The notes below the pieces were generated by a model. It was not told where the DNA came from and searched no databases. It was given only the letters and a program-made list of their open reading frames with translations. A stretch of 64,000 bases of DNA from Larkinella soli (GTDB taxonomy: Bacteria; Bacteroidota; Bacteroidia; Cytophagales; Spirosomataceae). Shown piece after piece: positions 4,623 through 38,600 of this stretch (the first letter of the stretch is position 1; the number at the start of each line of letters is the position of its first letter). The stretch is from NCBI RefSeq assembly GCF_003703975.1, contig NZ_QTJY01000002.1, forward strand, positions 372,001 to 436,000. The letters are read 5' to 3'. A program made the translations under genes and the position numbers.

Positions 4623-4640
4623 AACGGTTCAGGAATTTTA

Positions 4641-4755
4641 ACCACCCCCCTACCCCCTCCTTACCAAGGAGGGGAGTGCGCTGCCCGGTTAGTTCCCCTT
4701 GAAGGGCTGGGGTTATATCACCCCCTCCTTGGTAAGGAGGGGGCCGGGGGGTGGT
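4641..4755. repeat. Palindromic intergenic repeat, copy 1 of 3
   Basis: The 115-base element is bounded by ACCACC and its complement GGTGGT. It encloses two small hairpins with arms CCCCTCCTT / AAGGAGGGG. A shared centre, AGTGCGCTGCC, sits between the hairpins on the plus strand. Copies 2 (24123-24225) and 3 (47274-47378) have the same architecture. It lies within the sugar operon, between the PQQ-type dehydrogenase and the SGNH esterase, where it could form RNA hairpins that tune expression. No coding potential was seen. Confidence 0.85.
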
Positions 4756-4759
4756 TTAC

Positions 4760-24316: not shown

Positions 24317-27019
24317 TTACCGGCGCAGCAGCCGGACCTGGCGGCTTTTTTCCGGGGTGCTTACCTTCAATACCATCAGCCCCGTCGCCGGCGTTCTCAG
24401 GTCGAACCGCTGATATTCAACCTTTGCCGCTTTTTCCAGCCGACGGCTTTCAATCACCCGCCCCTGCAGATCGATCAGTTCGAAACGAAGCGGACGGCTT
24501 TCAGCGCCCTGCACTTCCACCTCCAGTTCCTCCCCGACCGGGTTTCCCCGCACGACCACATGGAAGTCAGCCACCGGGGCGGTGCCGATCCGGCCCGCCG
24601 GCGCACACGTAAAGGTTTTGGGCGCCCCTTTCAGGACGTAGGCACTGCCCGCGATCCGGGCGCCGACGGAGTGCGCCCGGCCGTCCCGGAAAGCGGAGGG
24701 AATGGGGAAGCTGTAACCGTGAACCCCGTTGCCTTTGCCGGCATCCTTCAGGTCCTGCCGGAATAGATCGGCTCTCACCTGACCCAGCACGGTGCTACCC
24801 TCGTAAAATTCAACGACCATGACCGTATTGGGTTTGTTGCGGTCCCATACCCAGCCCCGCAACCCTCCGCAGTCGGCTTTGTCGAGGTAGCCTTCAAAAT
24901 TGCCGGTCACCGGGCCGGGCGGGGGCGGTGCGGCCGTTCCGACGGTCAGGCTGAGGGCCAGACTGGTGGTTTGCGGTTTAGTATCGGTGGCGGAATAGGT
25001 CAGGCTGAAGGGCCCGGTGACGCTCGGCGTTCCGCTGATGGTACGGGATAGGGCCGAAAAACTCAGCCCGCCCGGCAGGCCGGTCAGAGCATAGGTGAGC
25101 GGTCCGTCTTCGGGGTCGGTGAAGGCAGGAAGCACGGTCGAAAAGGCGACGCCCTGGGTCGCGGAAAGGGGGCCGGCCGCGGGGGCCGCCGGAGGAAGGT
25201 TGACGGGGGGCGGTGGCGGATTCCCGGAAGTGGGGCAGGTCACCGTTTTCGGAGAAAGTTTCAGGAGATAGGTGCTGCCCTGCACCCGCGCCCAGACGGT
25301 ATGTGCCCGGCCGTCGCGCAGGCTCGCGGGCGTGTTCAGCAGAAAGCCGTGGACACCGTTTCCTTTCCCGGCATTTTTCAGGTCCTGCCGAAAGATATTG
25401 GCTTCCGTGGTTCCCTGCACCGTTGCCGATCCGGCCGTGGCTCCGTCCAGAAACTCCACCGTATAGCTGACGTTGGGTTTGTCCCGGTTCCAGACCCAGC
25501 CGTACAGGGAGTTACAGTCGGCCCGGTCGAGAAAGCCCTCGAAATTGCCGGTGACGGTCACCGGGCCGGGCGCAGAGACGGCAAGATTCAGCGAAACCGA
25601 TGCGGAAACCAGCCCGTCCGTAGCTGCGTAAGCCACGGTAAATGAGCCGGTCTGGGAGGTGGTGCCCGAAAGCGTGCGGGTAGACGGAACGAAAGTCAGG
25701 CCGGGAGGAAGCCCGGTCACGGAATAGGTCAGGTAGTCGTTGTCGGCATCGGTAAACGCAGGCAGAACCGCCCTGAAGGTCTGGCCGGCCGTCGCACTCA
25801 GGGAGGAAACCGCCGGGGCGGCCGGGGCGCGGTTGGCGGTGGGATCTCCGGCCCTCAGCCGGTATACGGTCCCTTCATTGAAGGTCAGGACGTACAATTC
25901 GCCGTCGGCCCCCTGTCCGAACCCGACGGGATTGGCGAGAACCGGCGTCTGAAGCGTATTTTGCAGGCTGCCGGCTTCCCGGCGAAGCAGCCACAGCTTC
26001 CCCTGGGCGTAGTCGCCGTAGACGTACCAGCCCTGAAGGCCCGGAAACCGGCTTCCACGATAGACGAAACCGCCCACCACGGAACTGCTCTGCCCGCCGT
26101 TGTTGGAAAAGCCCGCATACTCCAGCAGGGGCATCGTAAAATTGGCGGCCGGCGCGCAACCCGTCGCCACGTAGGGATGAGATCCCTCATAACACCGCCA
26201 GCCGAAGTTCAGACCGGCCGGAAGCGAGCCGCTCGAGGCCGGGACGAAGTTCACCTCCTCGTAACCGTCCTGCCCGTTGTCGCCCAGCCAGAGGTCGCCG
26301 GTCTGACGGTCGAAGCCGGCGCGCCAGGGGTTCCGCAGGCCGGCGGCCCAGATTTCATCCGGGATGCTGTCGCCGGGAGTTTGATACGGGTTAGTGGCAG
26401 GAATCCGGTAGGGCGGGGCGACGTCGACGTCGATGCGCAGGATTTTGCCGTACGGTTTTTTCAGGTTCTGGGCGTTGCCGAGCGGGTCGCCCGTCTTTCC
26501 CCGGTCGCCGTTGCCGTCGTCGCCCAGAAAAATGTACAGAAAGCCGTCGGGACCGAACAGCAGGCGTCCGCCCCGGTGGCCGTTGTCCGGAAAGGGGATC
26601 GCCATGACCACCGACTCGCTCGCCGGGTCGGCCACGTTCGGATTGCCGGCATTGCGGGTGAAGCGCGACACGACCGAGTAGCCGTCACTGCGGGCGTAAT
26701 AGACATATAGAAACCCGTTGCCCTGAAAATCCGGGTGAAACGCCATACTGAAGATACCGTTGAACTTCGTATCCCTCAGTTGGGAAGCCGGTATCTGAAG
26801 GAAGGGCGTCGAAAGGACGGTTCCCGACGACTCCAGAATCCTGATCCGTCCGCCGGCTTCCGCCACATACAGCCGGTCGGTTCCTCCGTGCGCCAGGTCG
26901 ACCGGTGCCTGGAAACCGGAAGCCACCGGCTGCAACTGGAGTTTCGGTACCTGGGAAACGGCCGGACCGGCGAAAAGAGAGCAGGAAATAAAGAGGAAAA
27001 CCCGGTAGAAACAGCACAT
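24317..27019 (-). CDS. T9SS-exported glucose/sorbosone dehydrogenase-like protein with repeated accessory modules
   Basis: The protein has 900 residues. A signal peptide (1-22) precedes a six-bladed PQQ-type dehydrogenase propeller (about 25-385; PVDLAHGGTDRLYVAEAGGR; FGPDGFLYIFLGDDGNGD; GLRNPWRAGFD). Then come a putative-Ig domain (~395-485), a Cys-bracketed module (~491-595), a second putative-Ig (~603-695), a second module (~706-805), and a C-terminal T9SS sorting domain (~812-900) ending in KSRQVRLLRR. The modules share a GWVWxRxKPN core and one Cys near each end. The same module occurs three times in the rhamnosidase at 33426-38600. It is probably a surface-attached sugar oxidase or lectin; the cofactor is inferred. 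Confidence 0.88.
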   Translation of the reverse strand: MCCFYRVFLFISCSLFAGPAVSQVPKLQLQPVASGFQAPVDLAHGGTDRLYVAEAGGRIRILESSGTVLSTPFLQIPASQLRDTKFNGIFSMAFHPDFQGNGFLYVYYARSDGYSVVSRFTRNAGNPNVADPASESVVMAIPFPDNGHRGGRLLFGPDGFLYIFLGDDGNGDRGKTGDPLGNAQNLKKPYGKILRIDVDVAPPYRIPATNPYQTPGDSIPDEIWAAGLRNPWRAGFDRQTGDLWLGDNGQDGYEEVNFVPASSGSLPAGLNFGWRCYEGSHPYVATGCAPAANFTMPLLEYAGFSNNGGQSSSVVGGFVYRGSRFPGLQGWYVYGDYAQGKLWLLRREAGSLQNTLQTPVLANPVGFGQGADGELYVLTFNEGTVYRLRAGDPTANRAPAAPAVSSLSATAGQTFRAVLPAFTDADNDYLTYSVTGLPPGLTFVPSTRTLSGTTSQTGSFTVAYAATDGLVSASVSLNLAVSAPGPVTVTGNFEGFLDRADCNSLYGWVWNRDKPNVSYTVEFLDGATAGSATVQGTTEANIFRQDLKNAGKGNGVHGFLLNTPASLRDGRAHTVWARVQGSTYLLKLSPKTVTCPTSGNPPPPPVNLPPAAPAAGPLSATQGVAFSTVLPAFTDPEDGPLTYALTGLPGGLSFSALSRTISGTPSVTGPFSLTYSATDTKPQTTSLALSLTVGTAAPPPPGPVTGNFEGYLDKADCGGLRGWVWDRNKPNTVMVVEFYEGSTVLGQVRADLFRQDLKDAGKGNGVHGYSFPIPSAFRDGRAHSVGARIAGSAYVLKGAPKTFTCAPAGRIGTAPVADFHVVVRGNPVGEELEVEVQGAESRPLRFELIDLQGRVIESRRLEKAAKVEYQRFDLRTPATGLMVLKVSTPEKSRQVRLLRR

Positions 27020-27118
27020 AAAGACAGAGCTGGTTTTGCCGATAATTTACTAAGAATCTGAGGATTGACGAAATCAGACCGAACTTTTGACAAAAAATTC
27101 CAATCCATACCGCCGTCC

Positions 27119-27147
27119 GGGGCCGGGCAGTCAGGCCGCCCGGCCCC
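27119..27147 (-). terminator. GC-rich hairpin at the end of the efflux operon
   Basis: A perfect 10-base stem, GGGGCCGGGC (27119-27128) with GCCCGGCCCC (27138-27147), straddles the stop codon of the RND pump gene. No T-run follows on the minus strand, so termination is only suggested. Confidence 0.35.
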
Positions 27148-30100
27148 GGTAGAATACGTAGAAGACGAGCGGGAAGACCAGCAGCGTCAGCACGGTGGCG
27201 GTGATCAGCCCGCCGATGACCACGATGGCCAGCGGTTTGGAGGTTTCCGAACCGATGCCGGTCGCCACGGCCGCCGGGATCAGACCGATGGCGGCCATCA
27301 TGGCGGTCATGACCACCGGCCGGACCCTCGACAGGACGCCCTGCAGGATAGAGTCGTTCAGCGACAGCCGGTTATGCAGGTTTTTCTTGAACACCGACAC
27401 TAGAATGACCCCATTCTGAATGCAGATGCCGAAGAGGGCGATGAAACCGATCCCGGCCGAAATGCTGAAGTTGACGTGCGTAATGAGCAGGGCCGCAATG
27501 CCGCCGATCATGGCGAAGGGGACGTTGAGCAGCACCATGCCGGCATCCCGCACATTCCCGAACAGCACGAACAGAATCAGGAAGATGCCGAACAGGCTGA
27601 CCGGGACGACCTGTTCCAGCCGTTGGGTGGCCCGCTGCTGGTTTTCGAAGTCGCCGGCCCATTTGATGGTGTAGCCCTGCGGCAGCTTGACGTGGGCATT
27701 CACCTTCTGCTGCGCTTCGGCCACGGTGCTGCCCATGTCACGACCCCGCACTGAGAACTTGACGGCCCCGTACCGCTGGTTGCCTTCGCGGTAGATCAGC
27801 ACCGGGCCGGTCTGCGTGTACACTTTCGCAATCTCCTTGATGGGAATCTGGGTGCCGTTGCGGGTCGGCACCATCAGTTCGGCGATCTGGCTTTCATTGG
27901 ACCGGAACGAGGGGATGTACCGGATGCGGAGGTCGAATTTACGTTCGCCTTCGTAGATTTCCGTAGCGGCTTTTCCGCCGATGGCCATTTCCACGACGGC
28001 CTCGGCTTCGGCCTTATCGACGCCGTAGAGCGCCAGTTTCTGCTCGTCCAGTTCGATGCGCAGTTCCGGCTGGCCGATGTTCCGGATCACACCCAGGTCC
28101 CGGATGCCGTCGACGGTCGCCAGTTGCTTCTCGACTTCCCGGGATTTGTTTTCCAGGGTATAGAGGTCGGGGCCGTAGATCTTCACCGCAATGGAACCTT
28201 TGACGCCCGAGACGGCCTCGGCCACATTGTCCATGATGGGCTGCGAAAAGCCGAAATCCACACCGGGGAAAACCTTCAGTTTCTCCTGCATCCGGTCGAT
28301 GAGCTGCTCCTTGGTGATGGACTCCTTCCACTCGTCTTTCGGGTAAACGTCTACCAGAAACTCGACGTTGTAGAAACCGGTCGGGTCGGTGCCGTCGTTG
28401 GGGCGGCCGGTCTGCGAGATGACGCCCTTCACCTCCGGAAACTCCTCGAACACCTGCCGCATCCGGGTCGTGAGCCAGACCGACTCGGACAGTGAAATGC
28501 TCATCGGCATGCCGGCCCGGACGTAGATGGAGCCTTCGTCGAGTTCGGGCAGAAATTCCGTTCCGAGCAGCGTAAAGCCCGACAGGCCGATTACCACCAA
28601 CGCCACGGCCGCCAGCAGGCTGGCCCGTTTGTGGGCGAACGTATAGCCGAAAGCCCGGGTAACGTGGCGGCTGATGAACGCCACGAAGGGGTTGTGTTTT
28701 TCCCGTACGTTCTGCTTCAGCAGGATGCTCGTCAGGGCCGGCACCAGCGTCAGCGTAAAGATCAGGGCGCCCAGCAGGGCGAAGCCGAGCGTCCAGGCCA
28801 GCGGGGAGAACATCTTGCCCTCCACCTTCTGGAAAGAGAAGATCGGGATGAGGCAGGTGATGATGATCAGCTTGGAGAAAAAGATGGCTTTGCCCATCTC
28901 GGTGCCGGTTCGGCGCAGCACGCCCAGTTTGGCGAGTTTATTGAACTTCTCCATACCGTTGTGGTGTGCCATCTCGTCGAGGGTGACGAAAATCCCCTCC
29001 ACCATGACCACGGCCCCGTCCACGATGATGCCGAAGTCGATGGCCCCCATCGAGAGCAGGTTGGCCGACATGCCCCGAAGCCGCAGGCAGATGAACGCAA
29101 ACAACAGCGCCAGCGGGATGATGACCGACACGGTGACGGTGGTGCGCCAGTCGGCCATGAACAGGAAGACGATGACCGTCACGAACACGATGCCCTCGAT
29201 GAGGTTGTGCGTCACGGTATGGGTGGCGAAGTGAATGAGCGTTTCCCGGTTGTAGAACGTGTCGATTTTAACGTCCGACGGCAGGATCCTCGTATTCAGT
29301 TCCGTGATCTTGTCTTTAACCCGTTCGATGACTTCGCTGGGGTTTTCGCCCTTCCGCATCACCACGATGCATTCCACCACGTCGTTCTGCCGGTCGCGGC
29401 CGGCCTGACCCAGCCGGGGCAGGGCCGACTCGCTCACCTGAGCCACGTTCCGCACCATGATGGGGGTACCGTGAACGTTTTTGATGACGATATTCTGAAT
29501 ATCCTGGCTGTTTCTGAGCAGGCCGATGCCCCGGACGACGTAGGCTTCCGAGTTCTTTTCGATCACGTCGCCCCCGACGTTGACGTTGGAATTGGCCACG
29601 GCCTGATAGAGTTGCAGCGGGGTGATGTCGTAGTCGAGGAGCCGGCGCGGGTCCACCGAGATTTCGTAGGTTTTCACCTCCCCGCCGAAGCTCACGACGT
29701 CGGCGACGCCCGGAACGCTTTTCAACTGGCGGTCAATCACCCAGTCCTGGAGGGTTTTCAGGTCACGGGCGGAGCGGGTGCCGCTTTTGAGCGTATACCG
29801 GAAAATCTCACCGGTGGGGCCGTAGGGCGGCTGCACCTCCGGTTTGACGCCCTCGGGCAGATCGACGTTGCTGAGCAGGTTGTTGACCTGCTGGCGGGCG
29901 AAGGCATCGTCCACACCGTCCTCGAACAGCACCTTCACGACCGACAGGCCGAAGAGGGTGGTCGAGCGGATGTCGGTTTTCTTCTGGACCGGGTTCAGCC
30001 CGATCTCGACGGGAATGGTGACGAACTTCTCGATTTCCTCGGCGCTGCGGCCCGGCCACTGGGTGATGAGCGTGATCTGGGTGTTGGTCACGTCCGGAAA

Positions 30101-30223
30101 CGCTTCGATGGGCGTATTCCGGTAGCTGATGTACCCGGCCACGGCGGCCACGGCCGTCAGAAAGAAGACAAAGAACTTGTTCTTCAGCGAGAAGGACAGG
30201 ATATTTTTTATGAACTTATTCAT
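27131..30223 (-). CDS. CusA/CzcA-family heavy-metal efflux RND transporter
   Basis: The 1030-residue inner-membrane proton antiporter is of HME-RND type, and its length is normal for the family. The proton-relay helix 4 reads GAIDFGIIVDGAVVMVEG with both Asp and the Glu. NDGTDPTGFYNVEF in the periplasmic porter region and TPIEAFPDVTNTQITL at the N-terminus are typical of CzcA/CusA proteins. It would drive metal cations out through the adaptor and outer-membrane channel encoded just upstream in the same operon. Whether the ion is Cu/Ag or Co/Zn/Cd cannot be fixed from sequence alone; the motifs look more like the divalent-metal group. Confidence 0.93.
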   Translation of the reverse strand: MNKFIKNILSFSLKNKFFVFFLTAVAAVAGYISYRNTPIEAFPDVTNTQITLITQWPGRSAEEIEKFVTIPVEIGLNPVQKKTDIRSTTLFGLSVVKVLFEDGVDDAFARQQVNNLLSNVDLPEGVKPEVQPPYGPTGEIFRYTLKSGTRSARDLKTLQDWVIDRQLKSVPGVADVVSFGGEVKTYEISVDPRRLLDYDITPLQLYQAVANSNVNVGGDVIEKNSEAYVVRGIGLLRNSQDIQNIVIKNVHGTPIMVRNVAQVSESALPRLGQAGRDRQNDVVECIVVMRKGENPSEVIERVKDKITELNTRILPSDVKIDTFYNRETLIHFATHTVTHNLIEGIVFVTVIVFLFMADWRTTVTVSVIIPLALLFAFICLRLRGMSANLLSMGAIDFGIIVDGAVVMVEGIFVTLDEMAHHNGMEKFNKLAKLGVLRRTGTEMGKAIFFSKLIIITCLIPIFSFQKVEGKMFSPLAWTLGFALLGALIFTLTLVPALTSILLKQNVREKHNPFVAFISRHVTRAFGYTFAHKRASLLAAVALVVIGLSGFTLLGTEFLPELDEGSIYVRAGMPMSISLSESVWLTTRMRQVFEEFPEVKGVISQTGRPNDGTDPTGFYNVEFLVDVYPKDEWKESITKEQLIDRMQEKLKVFPGVDFGFSQPIMDNVAEAVSGVKGSIAVKIYGPDLYTLENKSREVEKQLATVDGIRDLGVIRNIGQPELRIELDEQKLALYGVDKAEAEAVVEMAIGGKAATEIYEGERKFDLRIRYIPSFRSNESQIAELMVPTRNGTQIPIKEIAKVYTQTGPVLIYREGNQRYGAVKFSVRGRDMGSTVAEAQQKVNAHVKLPQGYTIKWAGDFENQQRATQRLEQVVPVSLFGIFLILFVLFGNVRDAGMVLLNVPFAMIGGIAALLITHVNFSISAGIGFIALFGICIQNGVILVSVFKKNLHNRLSLNDSILQGVLSRVRPVVMTAMMAAIGLIPAAVATGIGSETSKPLAIVVIGGLITATVLTLLVFPLVFYVFYRGRAA

Positions 30224-30277
30224 GATTGTTCATGGAAATGGCGGCAAGGCCGTTGCGTGGGTGATACCGGGAAGACT

Positions 30278-31396
30278 TTAATGGCCCAGAGCGCTGTAAA
30301 CCAGCAGGCTGTTCCGGGTGACGACGCGGTCGCCGGGGGCCAGGCCGCCGGTCAGGTAGGTTCGGTTGCCGATGGTCTTGAAAACCGTCACCTCCCGGAC
30401 CACCGGCTGGCCGGCCCGGGTCAGGGCCACCACGAAATTCCGGCTCTGATCGAACACCAGGGCTTTGGACGGCACCGTCACCCGCTGGTCGTGACCGGCA
30501 AACTGCACCGTCACGGTGGCGAACATTTCCGGCTTGAGGGTGTAGTCGGCGTTGGCCAGCGTCACCCGGACTTTCAGGGTCTTGCTTTCCGGATCGAGCA
30601 CGTTGAAAATCTTGTCGATTTTGCCGCGGAATAGCCGGTCGGGGTATGAGAGGGTAGCAATCGTGGCGTCGTCGCCTTCCTTCACCTGCGAGAGGTCGGA
30701 TTCATAGACGTTCGCCAGCACCCAGACCTGATCGAGGTTGGAGATGGTAAACAGGTTTTCGGGGTCGTCGGAGCGGATTTCCATGCCCTGCGAGGCATTT
30801 TTCTCCACCACGAACCCGTTCACCGGCGACTTGACGACATAGACCGAGCCCGATCCGCCCAGGATGCTCCGGCGTTCGGCCACCCGGTTTACCTCCCCTT
30901 TGGCGGCCTCCAGCTGCTCGCGGGCGGCCACCAGCTCCCGTTGGGAAGCCAGACCGGCCTGGGCCATATCTTCGGTTACCTGAAGGTTCTTGCGGGCGAC
31001 GGATAATTGCCCTTTGGCCGCAATGGCCTGCTGGGCGAGGTCGGCCAGGTCGCCGGACCGGATCACGGCCAGCACCTGCCCTTTCTCAACGTAAGAACCG
31101 AGCTCGGCCTTCACCGCGTCGACATGGCCGCCCACCAGCGGGAACACCTTCACGACCTTGTCCTGATTGAAGGTGATTTTTCCGGTCAGACTCAGCTCAT
31201 TTCGAACCGTTTCCAGCCGGGCCGTGTCGATTCCGGCCATGGCCGGCAGGTTCGTTTCCTTCGGCTGCCCGGCGGCCGCATCCTCCGGGTTCGCCGACGA
31301 CCGGCAGCCCGTCAGGCTCCAGGTCAGGCCCACCAGAATGAGCAGCAGCGGTCGGACGAAGGCGGGGATAATCAGGGTGTGTTGGGGTATGTTCAT
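30278..31396 (-). CDS. RND efflux periplasmic adaptor lipoprotein (CzcB/CusB type)
   Basis: The protein is about 372 residues from ATG 31396. An upstream in-frame ATG at 31465 would overlap the TolC gene and spoil the signal. The chosen start gives a lipoprotein signal ending in SLTGCRSS. A hairpin-type membrane-fusion protein follows: PLVGGHVDAVKAELGSYVEKGQVLA (barrel-sandwich half), coiled-coil helices near AQQAIAAKGQLSVARKNLQV, and KSPVNGFVVEKNASQG. No extra metal-binding N-terminal domain is visible. It bridges the RND pump and outer-membrane channel, and lies between their genes. Confidence 0.92.
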   Translation of the reverse strand: MNIPQHTLIIPAFVRPLLLILVGLTWSLTGCRSSANPEDAAAGQPKETNLPAMAGIDTARLETVRNELSLTGKITFNQDKVVKVFPLVGGHVDAVKAELGSYVEKGQVLAVIRSGDLADLAQQAIAAKGQLSVARKNLQVTEDMAQAGLASQRELVAAREQLEAAKGEVNRVAERRSILGGSGSVYVVKSPVNGFVVEKNASQGMEIRSDDPENLFTISNLDQVWVLANVYESDLSQVKEGDDATIATLSYPDRLFRGKIDKIFNVLDPESKTLKVRVTLANADYTLKPEMFATVTVQFAGHDQRVTVPSKALVFDQSRNFVVALTRAGQPVVREVTVFKTIGNRTYLTGGLAPGDRVVTRNSLLVYSALGH

Positions 31397-31442
31397 GATC
31401 GAAATTCTTTTGAGACGGTTATTCAGGAAAAAGAAGCAAGGA

Positions 31443-32711
31443 TCAGGGGCGGAACAGGTCGGCACCGACCGCGTAGTTCAGTTCCTCCAGACTCTGCTGC
31501 CGGTCGTTCTGAAGCTGCGTAAACTGAATCTGGCTGGATTTGTAGGAGTCGAAGAAATCCAGGAACTCGACGACGTCGATGTTCTGCTTGCGGTAGTTGA
31601 GCGTTACGCCCTGAATCAGCCGGCTGAAATCGCTGTTGAAACGCCGGTCGAAGGTGCGGGCCATGCGGTCCGCCTGCTGCGCCTTTGCGTAGGCCTTCTG
31701 CACGTCGCTTTCCACCTGAAGGGCATAGGCTCCGGCGGCCTGCCGGCTGCTCTGCGTCCGGATGGTGGCAGCCTGAATGTTCCCCTGATTCCGGTTGAAG
31801 ACCGGCAGATTGATCCCGACCCCAACGCCGACGTAGTTCGGAAGGTAGCCGGCATTGCGATCGTAGGTGGCCTGGACGGTCAGGTCCGGAACGGCCATCG
31901 CCTTCTGGAGTGCCAGATTCTGCTGCTCCTGTCGGGCCTGATCTTCAAATGCCTTCAGGTCGAAACGGTGTTCTTCGGCGGTTTTCACCAGTTCGTCGAC
32001 CTTCAGGCCGGCCACCGACGGCCGGTTCAGATCGGCTTCCGACAGCACCGGCACGATGGTTTGCAGGGGACTTTGATTGAGCAGAACGGCCAGGTCGGCC
32101 TGATCGTCGATGGCCCGCTTCAGTGCCAGTTGGCGCTCGGTCGTCAGCGTAAACAGATAGGCCTTGAGCCGGGCCAGATCTTTCAGCGGCACGTTTCCTT
32201 TGTCGAACTGCTGCTGGTAAAGATCGACCGTCTGCTCCAGCGTCTGAATCTCCTGATCGTATACCGTCAGGGCCTGCCGGGTGAAATACAGGTCGTAAAA
32301 CGTACTCCGGAGCTGGAAACTCAGCGTCCGGATGAGGTCGTAATACCGGTCGCCGGCCAGGGCCGTTCCCGTCCGGGCGACGGCCAGCTGCCGGTTGCGC
32401 TTCCCGGCCAGCAGCAGCAGTTGCTGGAACTGCACCACCTGCTCGGAGTTGGCCTGGCGCACCGGCATGAACTCTTTCGTGTGAGCATTATACGGCATCT
32501 GCTCGATATAAACGCCGGGATTGTTCCGGAGCCGGGTCTGGTATTCATAAGCCTGGCCTTCGTCGATGCCCATTCGGGCGGCAATCAGCTGGAGGTTACC
32601 GCGCCGGAAATCAGCCTCGGCCTGAGGCAGTGTGTAGGTAAGCGTGTCACCGGCAGTCGCCCGGGTGACCAGAAGCCCGAACAAGGCTCCAGATGCCAAT
32701 AGAATTTTCAT
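31443..32711 (-). CDS. TolC-family outer membrane efflux channel (CzcC/CusC type)
   Basis: The 422-residue protein has a signal peptide (1-20). Two outer-membrane efflux repeats of long alpha-helices are seen, for example ERQLALKRAIDDQADLAVLL and ADRMARTFDRRFNSDFSRLI. The motif VGVGINLPVFNRNQGNI, marking the strand-to-helix turn, is typical of CzcC-like proteins. There is no lipobox. It is the outer-membrane exit duct of the metal pump encoded downstream and lies 46 bases before the adaptor start. A small secreted protein gene precedes it. Confidence 0.92.
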   Translation of the reverse strand: MKILLASGALFGLLVTRATAGDTLTYTLPQAEADFRRGNLQLIAARMGIDEGQAYEYQTRLRNNPGVYIEQMPYNAHTKEFMPVRQANSEQVVQFQQLLLLAGKRNRQLAVARTGTALAGDRYYDLIRTLSFQLRSTFYDLYFTRQALTVYDQEIQTLEQTVDLYQQQFDKGNVPLKDLARLKAYLFTLTTERQLALKRAIDDQADLAVLLNQSPLQTIVPVLSEADLNRPSVAGLKVDELVKTAEEHRFDLKAFEDQARQEQQNLALQKAMAVPDLTVQATYDRNAGYLPNYVGVGVGINLPVFNRNQGNIQAATIRTQSSRQAAGAYALQVESDVQKAYAKAQQADRMARTFDRRFNSDFSRLIQGVTLNYRKQNIDVVEFLDFFDSYKSSQIQFTQLQNDRQQSLEELNYAVGADLFRP

Positions 32712-32802
32712 GGCCTGGTGTGATCAGATGAGGGGTATTCCTAAAACGGTTGATTTCAGGCGCACCCCGCACGGGGCGGCCCTGCCGACGGAACCGTTCG
32801 GG

Positions 32803-33147
32803 TCAGGGAATCCGGAGGGAGCAAAAGAGGACGTAGAGGGCAATTTTCCGTCCGGTGGCGTTTCCGGCTTCGGGCCGGTAAACCCGGCAGAACGGTGAAA
32901 AGCGACCGTTCCACACCCGTTCCGGGAAGCTGGAAAGCAGGGCCGGCGACGGGTCCGGCAGATGATCGGGCGTTTCATCGGGGGTGGCACACACCCAGGC
33001 CGGCCCGACGGCCCAAAACGCATCGGCCGTTTTTTTGAAACGCAGTCCGCTCCGGCCGTCTTCCCCGGCTGCCGCCGGTACGATGGCCTGAAAAGCCAGC
33101 ACCCAGAGGAAGCCGAGAAAAATACCGATTCGGGTGGCTGCGGACAT
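32803..33147 (-). CDS. Small secreted protein at the head of the metal efflux operon, unknown function
   Basis: The 114-residue protein has a signal peptide (TRIGIFLGFLWVLAFQAIVPAAAGE, cleavage near 28), followed by a mature part rich in Trp, Pro and Cys (AFWAVGPAWVCATPDETP; FSPFCRVYRPEAG; YVLFCSLRIP). I do not recognise a family. It lies 91 bases upstream of the TolC gene on the same strand, where Bacteroidota metal-efflux operons often carry a small metal-related protein, but no His-rich site is seen. A longer overlapping frame (32724-33170) lacks a signal and looks spurious. Confidence 0.55.
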   Translation of the reverse strand: MSAATRIGIFLGFLWVLAFQAIVPAAAGEDGRSGLRFKKTADAFWAVGPAWVCATPDETPDHLPDPSPALLSSFPERVWNGRFSPFCRVYRPEAGNATGRKIALYVLFCSLRIP

Positions 33148-33343
33148 CTTGCGTCAGGATTTAGGCGCAACCTATACCCCGCAGATAAAAAAGGGATGAA
33201 TTAGCCATTAAAAGCTAATTAAACGAAGGCCCCGGCCGGCACTACCTAAGTAGATACTGCCCGGGTCGGGCGCATCCTTTTCGGAAAGGCATTCATTTGT
33301 CGGACAAGCCGATAGGGATTATCAATAAATTAAAGTAACCGAT

Positions 33344-33351
33344 TATCTTTG
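33344..33351 (+). promoter_or_regulatory. Candidate -7 box for the rhamnosidase gene
   Basis: TATCTTTG matches the Bacteroidota -7 consensus TAnnTTTG. It lies 74 bases upstream of ATG 33426 in an AT-rich stretch. No convincing -33 element was seen. Confidence 0.4.
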
Positions 33352-33425
33352 AATGGAATACTTATTGATACAATTTCTCCCATAGAATCACCAACGTATA
33401 TCGACAAAACCTCTCCGACCCTTTC

Positions 33426-36400
33426 ATGAACCGGGTTCTGCTTTTTTTACTGCTGCTCCTGGCCGTTCCGGTCCTGGGCCAGCGCACCGTAACGCTTTCC
33501 GCTCTCCGTACCGAGAACCTTGCCGACCCTCAGGGCATCACCAAACCGGCTCCCCGGCTGAGCTGGACCATGAGCAGCGACCGGCGCGGCCTCCGGCAGG
33601 CCGGCTACCGGATTCTGGTGGCCTCCACCGCCGAAAAACTCAGTCAGGACGAGGGCGATCTCTGGGATTCGGGTGAGGTCTCGGGCGATCAGTCGCAGTG
33701 GGTACCGTATGGCGGAAGCCCGCTGACCAGCCGCCAGGTCTGTTACTGGAAAGTGCGTATCCGGAGTCAGGACGGCGTTACCTCCGCCTGGAGTGCGCCT
33801 GCCCGCTGGGACATGGGCCTCATGCAGGCCTCCGACTGGACGGCGCAGTGGATCGGGCTGGACTCGGCTTTTGCCTGGGATGCCCCCACGGCCGTCAACA
33901 CCCGGCTGTCGGCCCGGTATTTCCGCAAACAGGCCCATCTGCCGAAAACCATCCGGCACGCTACGGCCTACGTCAGCGGGCTTGGCCTGTATGAACTTTC
34001 GCTCAACGGCCGTAAAGTCGGCGATGCGGTGCTGGCCCCCGGCCCGACCGAATACGACAAACGGGTGCTGTACAACACCTACGACGTCACCGGTCTCCTC
34101 CAGACCGGCCTGAATGCCGTCGGGGTGACGCTCGGCAACGGACGGTATTTCGCCATGCGGGTCAACCAGCCGTCGGTGCCGGCCATGACGCACTACGGCT
34201 ACCCGAAGCTGCGGCTCCAGATCGAGGTCGTCTACACCGACGGCACCACCGACCGGATCGTCAGTGACGGCTCCTGGAAAATGACCGCCGACGGCCCCAT
34301 CCGGGCCAACAACGAATTCGACGGGGAGGAATACGACGCGACCCGTGAACTGAAAAACTCCTCCGGCACCGCCTGGGACCAGCCCGGTTTCGACGACCAG
34401 AGCTGGCTGAATGCCCGCCTGGTGGCCGAACCTGCCGGCCGGCTCGAATCGCAGATCAACCCGCCCATCCGGGTGGTGGAAACCCTGCGGCCGGTGTCGG
34501 TGAAGGAGGTGAGCGCCGGCCGGTTCATCGTCGATATGGGGCAGAACATGGTCGGCTGGGTCCGGCTGCGGGTGCAGGGCGCCCGCGGAACGAAAGTGAC
34601 GATGCGGTTTGCCGAGACGCTCAAGGAAAGCGGTACGCTCTACATCGATAACCTGCGCTCGGCCCGGGCCACGGACATCTACATCCTCAAAGGGGAGGGC
34701 GAGGAACTCTGGGAACCCCGTTTTACCTACCACGGCTTCCGCTACGTAGAGCTGACCGGCTTTCCCGGCACACTCACCACCGCCGGCGTGGAGGGCCGGG
34801 TGGTGCATGACGACCTCCCGCAGGCCGGTACCCTCACCACCTCCAGCGACCTGCTCAACCAGATCTATAAAAGCGCCTTCTGGAGCGTCCGGGGCAATTA
34901 CCGGGGCATCCCGACCGACTGCCCGCAACGGGACGAACGCATGGGCTGGCTGGGCGACCGCACCGTCGTGGCCGCCGGGGAAAGCTATCTGTTTGCCAAC
35001 CACGCGCTTTACGCCAAGTGGCTCGACGACATTGAAAATGCCCAGAAGGACGACGGCAGCCTGCCCGACGTGGCTCCGAGCTACTGGAAGAAATATACCG
35101 GCAACATGACCTGGCCGGCGGCTTACGTCTTCGTCGCCAATATGCTGTATGAACAGTTCGGCGACGACGAGCCGATTCGGAAGCATTACGAGTCGATGAA
35201 AAAATGGCTCAGCTACGCCGGCAGTAAATTCGTGAACAGTTCCGGTATCTACTGGAAGGACGAATACGGGGACTGGGCCGTGCCGCCCGAATCCCCTTCG
35301 CTGGTACACACCCAGGATCCCGCCCGCAAGACCGACGGCGGTCTGCTCGGGACGGCCTATTATTATTCCGTGCTGAAGCTGATGGAGCGGTTTGCCGGTG
35401 TGGTGGGCAACGAAACCGACCGGACGGCCTTTTCCTCCCGGGCCGAAACCGTGCGAAATGCCTTCAATCAGGCCTATCTGAAGCGCGACCAGCTCCAGTA
35501 CGGCAACAATACCACGACGGCCAACCTGCTGGCTCTGGCCTGCGGGCTGGTTCCTGATGACCTCTACCGGGGCGTTTTCCGGCAGATGACGGGCCGGATG
35601 GAGGGCGAATACAAAAGCCATATCAGCACCGGCATCATCGGCACTTCCTGGCTTATGCGGAACCTGACCGCCAACGGACGGGGCGACCTCGCCTACCGGC
35701 TCGCAACCAATACCGACTACCCGAGTTGGGGCTACATGATGCGGAACGGGGCCACCACCCTCTGGGAGTTATGGAACGGCAACACGGCCTCTGCCTCGAT
35801 GAACTCGGGCAACCACGTCATGCAGCTGGGCGATCTGTTGCAGTGGTATTACGAAAACCTGGCGGGCATCCGATCCGGCGGCCCCGGCTTCCGGACCGTC
35901 GAAATGCGGCCCTATCCCTCCGGCGACCTGACCCGGGTGGCGGCCACCTTCGCATCGGTGTATGGCCTGACCGGCAGCGAGTGGACAAAAACCGCCCGCG
36001 AATTCCGCTGGAAGGTGACGGTACCGGGCAACGCAACGGCCACGGTATTTATTCCGGCCAGGGACGCGGCCGAGGTCCTGGAAGGCAGCAGCTCTGCCGC
36101 GAACGCCGAGGGCGTAACCTTCCTGCGGATGGAGGGCGACCGGGCGGTTTTTCAGGTCGGCTCGGGGCAGTACAGCTTTTTTTCCACCCTGCCCGACACC
36201 ACGAATCGCCCCCCGACGGCACCCGGGTACAATCCCCCGCCGGCCAAAGTCGGAACGCCGTACAGCTACACCCTTGCTCCCTTCACGGACCCGGAAAACC
36301 GGCCGATTACCTACGCCTACGGCGGCACCGTTCCCGGCATGACCTTCGACACTACCAGCCGGGTGATGAGCGGGACGCCGACGCAGACCGGCACGTACTC

Positions 36401-38600
36401 CTTTACGGTGACGGCCACCGACGACAAGGGGCTGTCCGCCACCGCCGTTCTGACGTTTGCGGTCACTACCGGCTCGACCCAGCCGATCGCCAGTTATGAA
36501 GGCTTTCTGGATGCGGTCCGCTGCGACAACGACATCTGGGGCTGGGTTTGGGACCGCAATCAGCCTAACCTCGCGCTCACGGTTGAAATCCTCGACAGCA
36601 CGGTCGTGATCGGAACCGTCAGGGCCGATCTGTTCCGGCCCGATCTGCTCACGGCCAAAAAAGGCGACGGCGAACACGGGTATTCCTTCCTGACCCCGGC
36701 CTCGCTGAAAGACGGAAAACCGCACAGCATCATCGTCCGGGTGAAAGGCGCGGGCTACCAGTTGAAAAGTACGCCGAAGGTCGTGACCTGTGCGGTGACA
36801 CCGCCCCCTCCGGTCAACCAGCCGCCGGCGGCTCCGGCCGTCAGTCCTCTTTCGGCCACGGTCGGCACTGCCTTTAGCACGACCCTGGCGGCCTTCACCG
36901 ATCCGAACAACGATGCGCTGACCTATACGCTGAGTACACCGCCTTCGGGGCTGACCTTCAATGCCACCACCCGGGTGCTGAGCGGCACGCCCACGGCCTC
37001 CGGCAGCTTCAGCCTGACCTACACGGCCAACGACGGACAGGCCTCGGCCAACACCTCCGTATCCATCACGGTCAGTCCCCAGCCGCCGGTCAACCAGCCG
37101 CCGGCGGCTCCGGCGACGGCTCCGCTGTCGGCTACGGTCAATGCGGCTTTCTCGGCCACCCTTCCGGCCTTTACCGATGCCGACAACGATGTGCTGACGT
37201 ATTCGCTGGCGGGCCTTCCGGCCGGTCTGACCTTCAATGCCACCACCCGGGCGCTGAGCGGCACGCCGACCCAGGCCGGGAGTTTCACTCTGACCTACAA
37301 GGCTTCGGACGGCAAGGCACATGAGGTGAGCGCGACGGTTTCGCTGGCGGTCAGCCCGGCGGCTCCGGTGGTGACCGGTAACTTCGAAGGGTATCTGGAA
37401 GGGGCTAACTGCGGCTCTCTCTGGGGTTGGGTCTGGAACCGCGACAAGGGAAATACCGCCTACACGGTGGAGTTTCTGGACGGGGCCACGGTAGCCTCTG
37501 CGGTGGTCGTCGGGACGGTCGAAGCCAACGTCTTCCGGCAGGATCTGAAGAACGCGGGCAAGGGCAACGGGGCGCACGGGTATACCTTCCTCACGCCCGA
37601 AAGCCTGAAAGACAACCGGAGCCACACCCTCTGGGCGCGGGTGGCCGGCAGTACATATGTGTTGAAATATGCTCCGAAAACCATTACCTGCGCCGGAACC
37701 TCCACTCCCCCGCCGGTCAATGCCCCACCGGTGGCTCCGGCGGTTCCGGCCCTGTCGGCCACCGTCGGCACCGTCTTCACCACGACCCTGGCGGCCTTCA
37801 CCGATGCTAACAACGATGTGCTGACGTATTCGCTGGCGGGCCTTTCGGCCGGTCTGACCTTCAATGCCACCACCCGGGTGCTGAGCGGCACACCCACGGC
37901 GGCCGGCAGCTTCACCCTGACCTATGCAGCTTCGGACGGCAAGGCGACGGCTTCGACGCCGATCAGTTTGTCGGTCGCGGCCGCCCCGACGAAACCGGCC
38001 TCCTACGAGGGCTTTTTCGACAAGCTCGACTGCTCCGGCGGCCAGGGCTGGGTCTGGGACCGCAACCAGCCCAACACCCCGCTGACGGTCGAACTGCTGG
38101 AAGGAACGACGCTGATCACGACCTTCGAAGCCAACGTCTTCCGGCAGGATCTGAAAGATAAAGGGAAAGGCAACGGCCAGCACGGCATTTCGTTCGCGTT
38201 GCCGGTTTCGCTGAAAGACAACCGCCCCCACGCGCTCAGCCTGCGGGTTCAGGGTTCGGCCTTTCTGCTGAAGAATTCACCCCGCCCGGTCACCTGTCCG
38301 TCGGCGGCCCGGCTTTCGGCTCCGCCTTCATCGGAGGTGGAAATTTCCGGCGATCTGACGCCGGCCCCTAACCCGACCTCCGGACGCACGCGGGTCCGGT
38401 TCCGGCTGGCGGAAAACGAGCCGGCCACGCTGTCGGTTACGGACGTGCTGGGCCATATCCTGCACCAGCGACCGATACGGGGTACGGGGCAGACGCAGGA
38501 GGAAGTGGTCGAACTGGGCGGTTATTCACCCGGCATTCATTACATCCGGCTGCAAACCGGACAGCAGTCCAGGACGGGGCGGGTGCTGCTCCACCGTTAA
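33426..38600 (+). CDS. GH78 alpha-L-rhamnosidase with putative-Ig repeats, Cys-bracketed modules and T9SS sorting domain
   Basis: The protein has 1724 residues. After a signal peptide (1-18) comes a full GH78 region (~20-910). GIPTDCPQRDERMGWLGD near 495-512 carries the Glu/Asp catalytic site, and TTLWELWNGN and MNSGNHVMQLG follow. The C-terminal part alternates four putative-Ig domains (~926-1015, 1127-1212, 1217-1312, 1430-1517) with three Cys-bracketed modules (~1023-1122, 1318-1422, 1526-1624). It ends in a T9SS sorting domain (~1635-1724). It should release L-rhamnose from plant or microbial glycans at the cell surface. The catalytic half alone is the normal length for GH78; the 800-residue tail is the unusual part. 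A strong terminator follows. Confidence 0.93.
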   Translation: MNRVLLFLLLLLAVPVLGQRTVTLSALRTENLADPQGITKPAPRLSWTMSSDRRGLRQAGYRILVASTAEKLSQDEGDLWDSGEVSGDQSQWVPYGGSPLTSRQVCYWKVRIRSQDGVTSAWSAPARWDMGLMQASDWTAQWIGLDSAFAWDAPTAVNTRLSARYFRKQAHLPKTIRHATAYVSGLGLYELSLNGRKVGDAVLAPGPTEYDKRVLYNTYDVTGLLQTGLNAVGVTLGNGRYFAMRVNQPSVPAMTHYGYPKLRLQIEVVYTDGTTDRIVSDGSWKMTADGPIRANNEFDGEEYDATRELKNSSGTAWDQPGFDDQSWLNARLVAEPAGRLESQINPPIRVVETLRPVSVKEVSAGRFIVDMGQNMVGWVRLRVQGARGTKVTMRFAETLKESGTLYIDNLRSARATDIYILKGEGEELWEPRFTYHGFRYVELTGFPGTLTTAGVEGRVVHDDLPQAGTLTTSSDLLNQIYKSAFWSVRGNYRGIPTDCPQRDERMGWLGDRTVVAAGESYLFANHALYAKWLDDIENAQKDDGSLPDVAPSYWKKYTGNMTWPAAYVFVANMLYEQFGDDEPIRKHYESMKKWLSYAGSKFVNSSGIYWKDEYGDWAVPPESPSLVHTQDPARKTDGGLLGTAYYYSVLKLMERFAGVVGNETDRTAFSSRAETVRNAFNQAYLKRDQLQYGNNTTTANLLALACGLVPDDLYRGVFRQMTGRMEGEYKSHISTGIIGTSWLMRNLTANGRGDLAYRLATNTDYPSWGYMMRNGATTLWELWNGNTASASMNSGNHVMQLGDLLQWYYENLAGIRSGGPGFRTVEMRPYPSGDLTRVAATFASVYGLTGSEWTKTAREFRWKVTVPGNATATVFIPARDAAEVLEGSSSAANAEGVTFLRMEGDRAVFQVGSGQYSFFSTLPDTTNRPPTAPGYNPPPAKVGTPYSYTLAPFTDPENRPITYAYGGTVPGMTFDTTSRVMSGTPTQTGTYSFTVTATDDKGLSATAVLTFAVTTGSTQPIASYEGFLDAVRCDNDIWGWVWDRNQPNLALTVEILDSTVVIGTVRADLFRPDLLTAKKGDGEHGYSFLTPASLKDGKPHSIIVRVKGAGYQLKSTPKVVTCAVTPPPPVNQPPAAPAVSPLSATVGTAFSTTLAAFTDPNNDALTYTLSTPPSGLTFNATTRVLSGTPTASGSFSLTYTANDGQASANTSVSITVSPQPPVNQPPAAPATAPLSATVNAAFSATLPAFTDADNDVLTYSLAGLPAGLTFNATTRALSGTPTQAGSFTLTYKASDGKAHEVSATVSLAVSPAAPVVTGNFEGYLEGANCGSLWGWVWNRDKGNTAYTVEFLDGATVASAVVVGTVEANVFRQDLKNAGKGNGAHGYTFLTPESLKDNRSHTLWARVAGSTYVLKYAPKTITCAGTSTPPPVNAPPVAPAVPALSATVGTVFTTTLAAFTDANNDVLTYSLAGLSAGLTFNATTRVLSGTPTAAGSFTLTYAASDGKATASTPISLSVAAAPTKPASYEGFFDKLDCSGGQGWVWDRNQPNTPLTVELLEGTTLITTFEANVFRQDLKDKGKGNGQHGISFALPVSLKDNRPHALSLRVQGSAFLLKNSPRPVTCPSAARLSAPPSSEVEISGDLTPAPNPTSGRTRVRFRLAENEPATLSVTDVLGHILHQRPIRGTGQTQEEVVELGGYSPGIHYIRLQTGQQSRTGRVLLHR
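37183..37877 (+). repeat. Near-identical internal DNA repeats in the rhamnosidase tail
   Basis: The 68 bases at 37183-37250 recur at 37810-37877 with a single difference (67/68), spanning the core of putative-Ig domains 3 and 4. A related copy lies near 36949. The flanking modules also share an identical run of about 30 bases, including GTCTTCCGGCAGGATCTGAA. The degree of DNA identity implies recent duplication or gene conversion. Confidence 0.85.

What the first reader, a model, noticed from the sequence alone, without database searches (positions are those of the whole stretch)
24317..38600. Shared Cys-bracketed, Trp-rich module in two T9SS cargo proteins
A ~85-105 residue module with a core GWVWxRxxxN, a first Cys about 10 residues in and a last Cys at its end (e.g. 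1033 and 1122 in the rhamnosidase) occurs five times. Two copies are in the dehydrogenase-like protein (~491-595, 706-805) and three in the GH78 rhamnosidase (~1023-1122, 1318-1422, 1526-1624). It alternates with putative-Ig domains and precedes a T9SS sorting signal. I do not recognise it as a named family. The two Cys suggest one disulfide per module. It may be a surface glycan-binding or adhesion unit shared by unrelated enzymes, which would make it a reusable surface-protein cassette.
Basis: partly seen in the sequence, partly recalled or inferred. Interest (0 to 1): 0.72.

Follow-up and report, generated by a model that had tools for sequence, protein, structure and literature searches.

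The report
Uncatalogued surface-protein module, amplified in Larkinella
Two unrelated exported enzymes share a small building block with two fixed cysteines that the databases searched do not name; the same block occurs dozens of times per genome in this bacterial genus, on many different enzymes, and probably helps them hold on to sugars.

Summary
Five copies of a 97-102-residue module lie where stated, each with exactly two cysteines at fixed positions, between putative-Ig domains and the C-terminus. No Pfam, NCBIfam or PHROGs family fits it and no solved protein matches credibly by sequence. AlphaFold2 predicts a compact all-beta domain (pLDDT 97). The window lies in a Larkinella-type genome with 45 copies in 21 reading frames; 9 of 9 genomes held for the genus have 25-102 matches. 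Hosts include GH78, GH42-like, GSDH, CotH, SASA-esterase, PA14 and ricin-B proteins. The rhamnosidase keeps three modules in 7 of 7 species where it was found, while Ig spacers vary from 4 to 10. Sporadic homologues, mostly without the cysteine pair (8 of 39 rows have it), occur in Acidobacteriota, Planctomycetota, Proteobacteria, Clostridia and phage amidases; 5 of 19 such hosts scanned are glycosyltransferase-type. Best reading: an Ig-like accessory domain, disulfide-locked when exported, probably glycan-binding. Family and expansion are shown; disulfide and binding are inferred.

The parts
24317..27019 (-). GSDH-like exported protein, 900 aa, with two modules
   Evidence: ORF; PF07995 E 6.4e-36 at 37-385, He_PIG 1.2e-21
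25865..26911 (-). GSDH (glucose/sorbosone dehydrogenase-type) domain
   Evidence: PF07995, residues 37-385
25577..25813 (-). putative-Ig (He_PIG) spacer 1 of the GSDH protein
   Evidence: PF05345 residues 403-481
25235..25540 (-). module A1 (long type, 102 aa, residues 494-595)
   Evidence: (1.6e-35)
24950..25174 (-). Ig spacer 2 of the GSDH protein
   Evidence: PF17963 residues 616-690, just below its cut-off; Ig model
24605..24895 (-). module A2 (short type, 97 aa, residues 709-805); modelled by AlphaFold2 with 3 extra residues at each end
   Evidence: (the query)
24326..24544 (-). T9SS-tail-like C-terminus, below both cut-offs
   Evidence: TIGR04183 13.8 bits (cut-off 23), residues 826-898; PF18962 13.6 bits
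33426..38600 (+). GH78 alpha-L-rhamnosidase, 1724 aa, with three modules
   Evidence: ORF; PF17389 1.8e-108, PF08531 8.9e-55
33498..36077 (+). rhamnosidase region (residues 25-884)
   Evidence: PF25788, PF08531, PF05592, PF17389, PF17390
36204..36458 (+). Ig spacer before module B1 (start from the Ig model, end approximate)
   Evidence: start 946 in the 1743-residue frame = residue 927
36498..36791 (+). module B1 (short type, 98 aa)
   Evidence: (3.8e-30)
36816..37352 (+). two Ig spacers between modules B1 and B2
   Evidence: PF17963 1131-1215, PF05345 1229-1309; Ig model
37386..37691 (+). module B2 (long type, 102 aa)
   Evidence: (4.3e-36)
37719..37973 (+). Ig spacer between modules B2 and B3 (start from the Ig model, end approximate)
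   Evidence: start 1451 in the 1743-residue frame = residue 1432
38007..38297 (+). module B3 (short type, 97 aa)
   Evidence: (6.9e-35)
38367..38588 (+). T9SS type A sorting domain
   Evidence: TIGR04183 29.2 bits over cut-off 23, residues 1648-1721

Best explanation
The module is an uncatalogued family of Ig-like, all-beta accessory domains. In Larkinella it has been copied 25-102 times per genome onto many exported proteins, usually between the enzyme domain and the C-terminal sorting tail. Its two cysteines sit just after the first and just after the last strand of the model and probably form one disulfide that locks the domain outside the cell (inferred). Its most likely job is to bind a glycan, on plant or algal polysaccharide or on the cell's own surface coat, so that the enzyme is held near its substrate. 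Ig domains between the modules act as variable-length spacers. Shown: family, confident fold prediction, fixed Cys pair, host range, constant module number in orthologues. Inferred: disulfide, binding, ligand.
For: 45 modules in 21 own-genome frames on unrelated proteins; 9 of 9 Larkinella genomes held with 25-102 matches. AF2 pLDDT 97.1, pTM 0.87, seven strands and a short helix; an alignment of 19 homologues without the Cys pair gives the same order for six of the seven strands and the helix, pLDDT 82.5. 40 of 40 full own modules have exactly two Cys at the same two columns; Cys 2.00% in modules against 0.79% elsewhere in the same frames. GH78 orthologues: 3 modules in 7 of 7, Ig spacers 4-10; GSDH orthologues: 2 modules in 6 of 6. 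R46 is kept in 45/45 own and 41/41 other-genus modules, D48 in 44/45 and 41/41. Hosts include GH78, GH42-like, SASA, ricin-B, and farther away GT2, GT4, PMT_2, F5/8-C and a phage amidase-module-LysM protein. The only PDB fold match with E at or below 0.001 is the alginate-gel-binding Ig-like B1 domain of the T9SS enzyme CelAly.
Against: The CelAly B1 match has TM 0.40 and rmsd 7.5, so it shows at most the general fold; the Cys-less model has no PDB match with E below 0.2. Many hosts are not carbohydrate enzymes (CotH, GNAT, PhyH, radical SAM, subtilase), and 14 of 19 distant hosts scanned have no glycosyltransferase-type domain. No binding assay or ligand. Model coordinates were not on hand, so the Cys-Cys distance and exposed aromatic patches could not be measured. 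Constant module number may partly reflect that single modules between Igs cannot slip as tandem Igs do. Phage and Clostridia copies, which probably also act outside the producing cell, lack the Cys pair.
Confidence: 0.5

Rival explanations
1. The module is a structural bead: a rigid, protease-resistant spacer that extends enzymes from the surface, with no ligand.
For: Generic Ig-like fold neighbours; in one other genus 9 modules lie back to back shortly before a tail that looks like a T9SS tail, with no Ig between (G032, L201); alternates with known Ig spacers.
Against: In GH78 orthologues the Igs vary 4-10 while modules stay at 3; conserved polar residues R46 and D48, though these could be structural; occurs on glycosyltransferases and GNAT enzymes that need no surface stalk.
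Confidence: 0.28
2. The module is a protein-protein docking or self-association unit that assembles the exported enzymes into a surface complex, in the manner of a scaffold.
For: Many unrelated proteins share it in one genome; an Ig-like sandwich is a common docking fold (general knowledge); distinct long (101-103 aa) and short (96-98 aa) types coexist in one protein.
Against: No partner domain family is known, and none was searched for; single matches occur in distant genomes.
Confidence: 0.12
3. The module is a secretion or folding checkpoint for T9SS cargo: a disulfide-closed cap that protects the cargo or helps its passage.
For: Often directly before the sorting tail; Cys pair nearly constant in Spirosomataceae-family copies.
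Against: Three own-genome hosts show no sorting tail (by eye); homologues occur in Acidobacteriota, Proteobacteria, Clostridia and phages; few Bacteroidota sampled have it (3 of 345 genomes matched, with at most 14 candidates scored per genome).
Confidence: 0.07

Closest known systems
Pfam Big_7 (PF17957), bacterial Ig domain
   Same: Nearest curated family: sub-threshold match in 5 of 103 members (best E 0.0016); modules of the own-genome protein at C2:48858-50900 (L032) reach 22.7 bits and 22.3 bits, E 2.1e-4, in the whole-protein scan.
   Different: Below the 24.1-bit cut-off in this genome (0 matches over it); no Pfam hit at E 0.1 for the window module that heads the alignment; covers at best 51 of 70 positions.
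B1 Ig-like domain of CelAly (PDB 9kvu)
   Same: Ig-like domain in a T9SS-exported polysaccharide-degrading enzyme; reported to bind alginate gel beads through Lys and Arg on a flat face (PMC13235733, passages read); only PDB fold match with E at or below 0.001.
   Different: TM 0.40, rmsd 7.5, 18% identity; not among the sequence-search hits.
He_PIG (PF05345) putative-Ig domain
   Same: Interleaved with the modules in the same proteins.
   Different: A separate family: Ig-model hits lie between, not on, the modules; copy number varies where modules do not.
C-terminal domain of enterococcal phage endolysins (Zip, IME-EFm5 type)
   Same: Similar layout (GW..., RxDV, GF); BFVD fold match E 8.8e-4, TM 0.50.
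   Different: Profile-profile E 0.07 and 0.014 with probability 0.8% and 3.2%, HMM 3.5 bits: common origin not shown.
Phage amidase-module-LysM protein (L181-L183)
   Same: Contains a clear homologue of the module, 58.5 bits, between Amidase_2 and LysM.
   Different: No Cys in the module; function of that module is not known.

Membership tests
Pfam Big_7 (PF17957) | Score over the curated cut-off of 24.1 bits | tested here: not met
   Best own-genome match 22.7 bits, 0 over cut-off
Pfam DUF6805 (PF20620) | A stretch over the cut-off of 27 bits on a module | tested here: not met
   One distant host with six divergent modules (L202, another genus) passes as a whole protein (27.6 bits, no stretch on its own), but searched by place its module reaches 12.8 bits; real members in that genome are other proteins; own genome none over cut-off
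Any Pfam-A, NCBIfam or PHROGs family | Match over a curated cut-off (or significant E-value where none exists) by a stretch on the module | tested here: not met
   Window proteins and modules. 103 members one by one: best E 0.0016 Pfam, 0.012 NCBIfam, 0.012 PHROGs. Whole-protein sums over modules that pass or come near without any stretch passing: L202 DUF6805 27.6/27 and BPL_LplA_LipB 26.1/21 bits; L028 C6 22.9/27.9 and Auxin_repressed 22.1/25 bits
Carbohydrate-binding module (CBM) | Demonstrated carbohydrate binding | not testable with these tools
   No assay
Carbohydrate-binding module (CBM) | Attached to carbohydrate-active enzymes | tested here: inconclusive
   GH78, GH42-like, SASA, GT2, GT4, PMT_2 hosts, but also CotH, GNAT, PhyH, radical SAM, subtilase
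Carbohydrate-binding module (CBM) | Sequence match to a CAZy/dbCAN CBM family | not tested
   dbCAN is not on hand; the only Pfam CBM-named hit listed is CBM_4_9, E 0.095 in 1 of 103 members
T9SS type A cargo (host proteins) | C-terminal sorting domain over cut-off | tested here: inconclusive
   GH78 protein met in NCBIfam (29.2 bits, cut-off 23) but not in Pfam (19.3, cut-off 27); GSDH protein not met. Of the 19 other own-genome hosts 7 have Por_Secre_tail at E 0.001 or better, 3 of these over its cut-off; 3 run off contig ends (L024, L031, L033), 3 show no tail and 6 look tail-like by eye only
Enterococcal endolysin C-terminal domain | Significant profile-profile match | tested here: inconclusive
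   hhalign E 0.07 and 0.014, probability 0.8% and 3.2%
Ig-like beta-sandwich | All-beta domain of about seven strands with Ig-like topology | tested here: inconclusive
   Seven strands plus one short helix, pLDDT 97.1; the 50 PDB neighbours listed are mostly Ig, Fn3, antibody and Rel domains, but TM is only 0.30-0.46; coordinates not available to trace the topology

The most novel reading that the evidence does not exclude
An unnamed, cross-phylum glycan-recognition domain family that lacks the Cys pair on intracellular glycosyltransferases and in phage amidases and is disulfide-locked on exported enzymes of some phyla, and that Larkinella has turned into a genus-wide tag: dozens of swappable copies that target otherwise unrelated enzymes to one common surface or plant-derived glycan.
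Probability: 0.33. Interest if true: 0.72.

Novelty: new variant of a known kind. Interest (0 to 1): 0.55.

Why it matters
A domain present 25-102 times in every genome held for a genus, partly on enzymes that degrade or modify polysaccharides, has no family name in the libraries searched, so these proteins are annotated with a large blind part. If it binds glycan it is a new carbohydrate-binding module with many natural variants to compare; if it only spaces or docks, it reveals how one genus builds a common surface architecture. The fixed module number against variable Ig number in orthologues makes the question directly testable.

Tried and rejected
Named-family assignment: Pfam, NCBIfam and PHROGs scans, rejected as below threshold. 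The subthreshold Acylphosphatase hits (best 0.0043) cover 27-34 residues in 3 of 5 copies. DUF6805 and BPL_LplA_LipB just pass as whole-protein sums in one other-genus host (L202) without any stretch passing; for DUF6805 a search by place gave 12.8 bits on a module; BPL_LplA_LipB was not followed further. PDB sequence searches found nothing credible (the fluorinase matches, best E 0.016, cover about 25 residues of the GKGNG loop).

Membership in the enterococcal endolysin domain was tested because of a fold hit and not accepted. Phage-collection tblastn with a window module (2 records at E 6) and with a Butyrivibrio-MAG module (none) found nothing useful.

Module exchange between genes: in the tree of 70 modules (3 partial own modules left out) rhamnosidase modules m1, m2 and m3 of six other Larkinella each form a clade by position (100/99, 97/86, 98/84), but the window species' three do not join them. 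Forcing them in is rejected for m3 (AU p 0.0038) but not for m1 (0.122) or m2 (0.138). The Larkinella knui GSDH m1 joins the rhamnosidase m2 clade (98/95), but a single GSDH m1 clade is not rejected (p 0.30). So exchange is likely for one position and otherwise unproven. One very long row (own_L028_6251_9112_557) was dropped; it is in the tree. The program warns of few columns and long branches.

Selection bias: loci were found through the pattern [AK][GL][KG]G[ND]GxHG[FY], and those through DLxxAGKG[ND]G, so conservation of that stretch in A3 and A6, and part of the strength, is biased. Conservation is therefore quoted from own-genome modules and from 41 modules of five other genomes of the family, found by profile, not by that pattern. 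Whole-genome searches scored at most 14-34 candidates per genome, so absences there are not proof.

Literature: full-text searches for GWVWDRN, GWAWDP, AGKGNG, GKGNGVHG, GWVWDR, GKGNGKHG and GKGDGRHGF found no paper; that says little, since papers rarely print such strings. Searches on Larkinella genomes, CBM/Por-tail terms, endolysin binding domains and T9SS/CBM terms were seen as listings only and the listed titles and abstract starts show nothing on the module; ctiV651 gave no paper. Only passages of PMC13235733 were read.
Full report
OBSERVATION. The window holds a 900-aa GSDH-like protein (24317-27019, minus) and a 1724-aa GH78 rhamnosidase (33426-38600, plus). They alternate with He_PIG/Ig domains. 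The rhamnosidase ends in a T9SS type A sorting domain over NCBIfam's cut-off (not over Pfam's); the GSDH tail looks alike but scores below both.

NOT A NAMED FAMILY. Scans of both proteins, of the five modules and of 103 family members one by one gave no stretch over any cut-off in Pfam and NCBIfam at a module, and nothing below E 0.01 in PHROGs. The nearest is Big_7, a bacterial Ig family: 5 of 103 members, best E 0.0016; in the window's genome its best match, on a module of another protein, is 22.7 bits against a cut-off of 24.1. In one host of another genus, with six divergent modules, DUF6805 and BPL_LplA_LipB just pass as whole-protein sums without any single stretch passing; searched by place, DUF6805 gives 12.8 bits there and its real members are other proteins. 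PDB sequence searches with one module and with three profiles found nothing credible.

GENOME-WIDE AMPLIFICATION. An HMM found 45 modules (at least 40 bits) in 21 reading frames of the own genome. 40 are full length, and 40 of 40 have exactly two Cys, in the same two columns. Cys make up 2.00% of module residues (86/4294) and 0.79% (161/20384) of the rest of the same frames. Hosts with a recognised domain are 14 of 21: GSDH 3, GH78 1, GH42-like 3, CotH 3, SASA esterase 2 (one also ricin-B lectin), PA14 2; 7 of 21 have none beyond Ig-type domains and tail. Five module genes run into contig ends (C9, C10, C17, C27, C39), so counts may be low and some genes are split.

DISTRIBUTION. So the window's genus is Larkinella by inference. 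All 9 genomes held for the genus match: 46, 25, 57, 41, 44, 60, 102, 70 and 78 matches (102 and 70 are lower bounds). In the family 52 of 150 genomes and 14 of 36 genera match. In the order sample 7 of 194 match, all 7 in the same family. In the phylum sample 3 of 345 match: own, one of the same family, one of another family. Outside: 10 of 149 genomes in the phylum of an Acidobacteria MAG and 12 of 190 in the class of the Sphingobium locus, both counts including the centre genome. Not all candidates were scored in these sampled searches.

FOLD. AlphaFold2 on module A2 with 103 sequences gave mean pLDDT 97.1 and pTM 0.87: strands 3-11, 14-21, 29-35, 38-45, 61-66, 77-84, 96-99 and one short helix 50-54. 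In this numbering the two Cys are residues 12 and 100, just after the first and just after the last strand. A separate run on 19 homologues without the Cys pair, headed by a Sphingobium copy, gave six strands and the helix in the same order at pLDDT 82.5, with a C-terminus below 50. Foldseek against PDB gave one match with E at or below 0.001: the B1 Ig-like domain of CelAly (6.3e-4, TM 0.40, rmsd 7.5), then Rel, Fn3 and antibody domains. The second model had no match with E below 0.2. So the fold class is Ig-like at best, and no close solved relative was found. In BFVD the best match is an uncharacterised Siphoviridae protein (2.1e-7, TM 0.76).

CONSERVED CORE. Judged on modules not selected by the search pattern, R46 is kept in 45/45 own and 41/41 other-genus modules, D48 in 44/45 and 41/41, W15 in 44/44 and 38/41, A42 in 44/45 and 41/41, G60 in 40/44 and 38/41, P66 in 42/44 and 40/41; H59 is kept in 42/44 own modules but in under 80% elsewhere. 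The first Cys is kept in 43/44 and 40/41, the last in 41/41 and 23/23 modules whose match reaches it. In the Larkinella loci, 146 of 166 modules show both Cys; in most of the rest the match stops short of the last column. Outside Larkinella and the fetched other genera, 8 of 39 rows have the pair (Acidobacteriota, Phycisphaerales, Telluribacter); it is not seen in the Sphingobium, Stappia, Azospirillum, Clostridia and phage rows, and 7 rows have the first Cys only. The proteobacterial glycosyltransferase rows have no pair. This fits a disulfide used outside the cell, but phage and Clostridia rows, probably also extracellular, lack it.

HOMOLOGY OF THE TWO BRANCHES. Profile comparison of the 40 own-genome modules with the 19 homologues without the pair: probability 99.9, E 3.7e-37 over 92 columns, helped by the search pattern in one stretch. 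Of 19 distant hosts scanned with Pfam, 5 are glycosyltransferase-type: GT4 (Sphingobium, Salinicola), GT2 (Stappia, an Acidobacteria MAG), PMT_2; others are F5/8-C, subtilase, Amidase_2 with LysM in phage contigs, GNAT, PhyH, radical SAM, Lcl_C, SH3_3, WD40, or nothing recognised.

ORTHOLOGUES. The rhamnosidase has orthologues of 68-70% identity in 6 of 8 other Larkinella; more distant GH78 proteins (about 34-38% identity) have frames of 910-1125 aa in other species and 1220 aa in the own genome, where no module match falls in that frame. All 7 orthologues (own and 6) have exactly 3 modules while the Ig count is 4, 10, 5, 5, 6, 9, 4 and the frame length 1743-2290. The GSDH protein has 2 modules and 2 Igs in 6 of 6. 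A caution: single modules between Igs cannot slip as tandem Igs do. In another genus nine modules lie back to back (G032), so modules can also form arrays.

MECHANISM. Most likely an exported accessory domain that holds the enzyme to a glycan. Supports are the hosts, the phage amidase context, the fixed polar residues, the constant copy number and the fold precedent: CelAly B1 is an Ig-like domain of a T9SS enzyme reported to bind alginate gel (PMC13235733, passages). None of this is a binding test. Rivals are a structural bead, a docking unit and a T9SS folding aid; the last is least likely because the family is wider than T9SS.

NOVELTY. A new, unnamed domain family of a known kind (Ig-like accessory domains), with an unusual genus-wide amplification. 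No paper with its signature strings was found; dbCAN, InterPro and AlphaFold DB could not be searched, so an existing entry there cannot be excluded.

Noticed in passing
L028:6251-9112 (C2, near 119835) and L030:4932-8492 (C11, near 94887): Two proteins share the N-terminus MHLPLRSRTL and three closely similar modules but have different C-terminal parts and no visible T9SS tail; a variable-tail family. The C-terminus of L028 resembles that of L206 in another genus of the family.
   Followed up: partly
G000 contig ends C9, C10, C17, C27, C39: Module genes run off contig ends, suggesting that repeats broke the assembly; frames on C17 and C27 may belong to one large GH42-like protein (not joined).
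   Followed up: no
L201 (G032, C6), ORF 3284-7039 minus: Nine modules back to back with a period of about 103 residues and no Ig spacers; two copies are identical and another two differ by one residue.
   Followed up: no
L103:7539-13016 (Sphingobium sp. YR768): Five Cys-less modules in tandem on the N-terminal side of a multi-domain glycosyltransferase (GT4 and GT2).
   Followed up: partly
L181-L183 (IMG/VR contigs): Phage amidase with the module between Amidase_2 and LysM, a usual place for a cell-wall-binding domain (general knowledge).
   Followed up: partly
L158:9756-10118 and relatives (alignment A4): Enterococcal and Listeria phage endolysins carry a C-terminal domain whose layout resembles the module (no Pfam hit there in the Zip endolysin); remote relation unproven.
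   Followed up: partly
window 27131-32711: Frames that read like an RND efflux pump, its adaptor and a TolC-like outer-membrane protein lie between the two module proteins (judged from the translation; not scanned).
   Followed up: no
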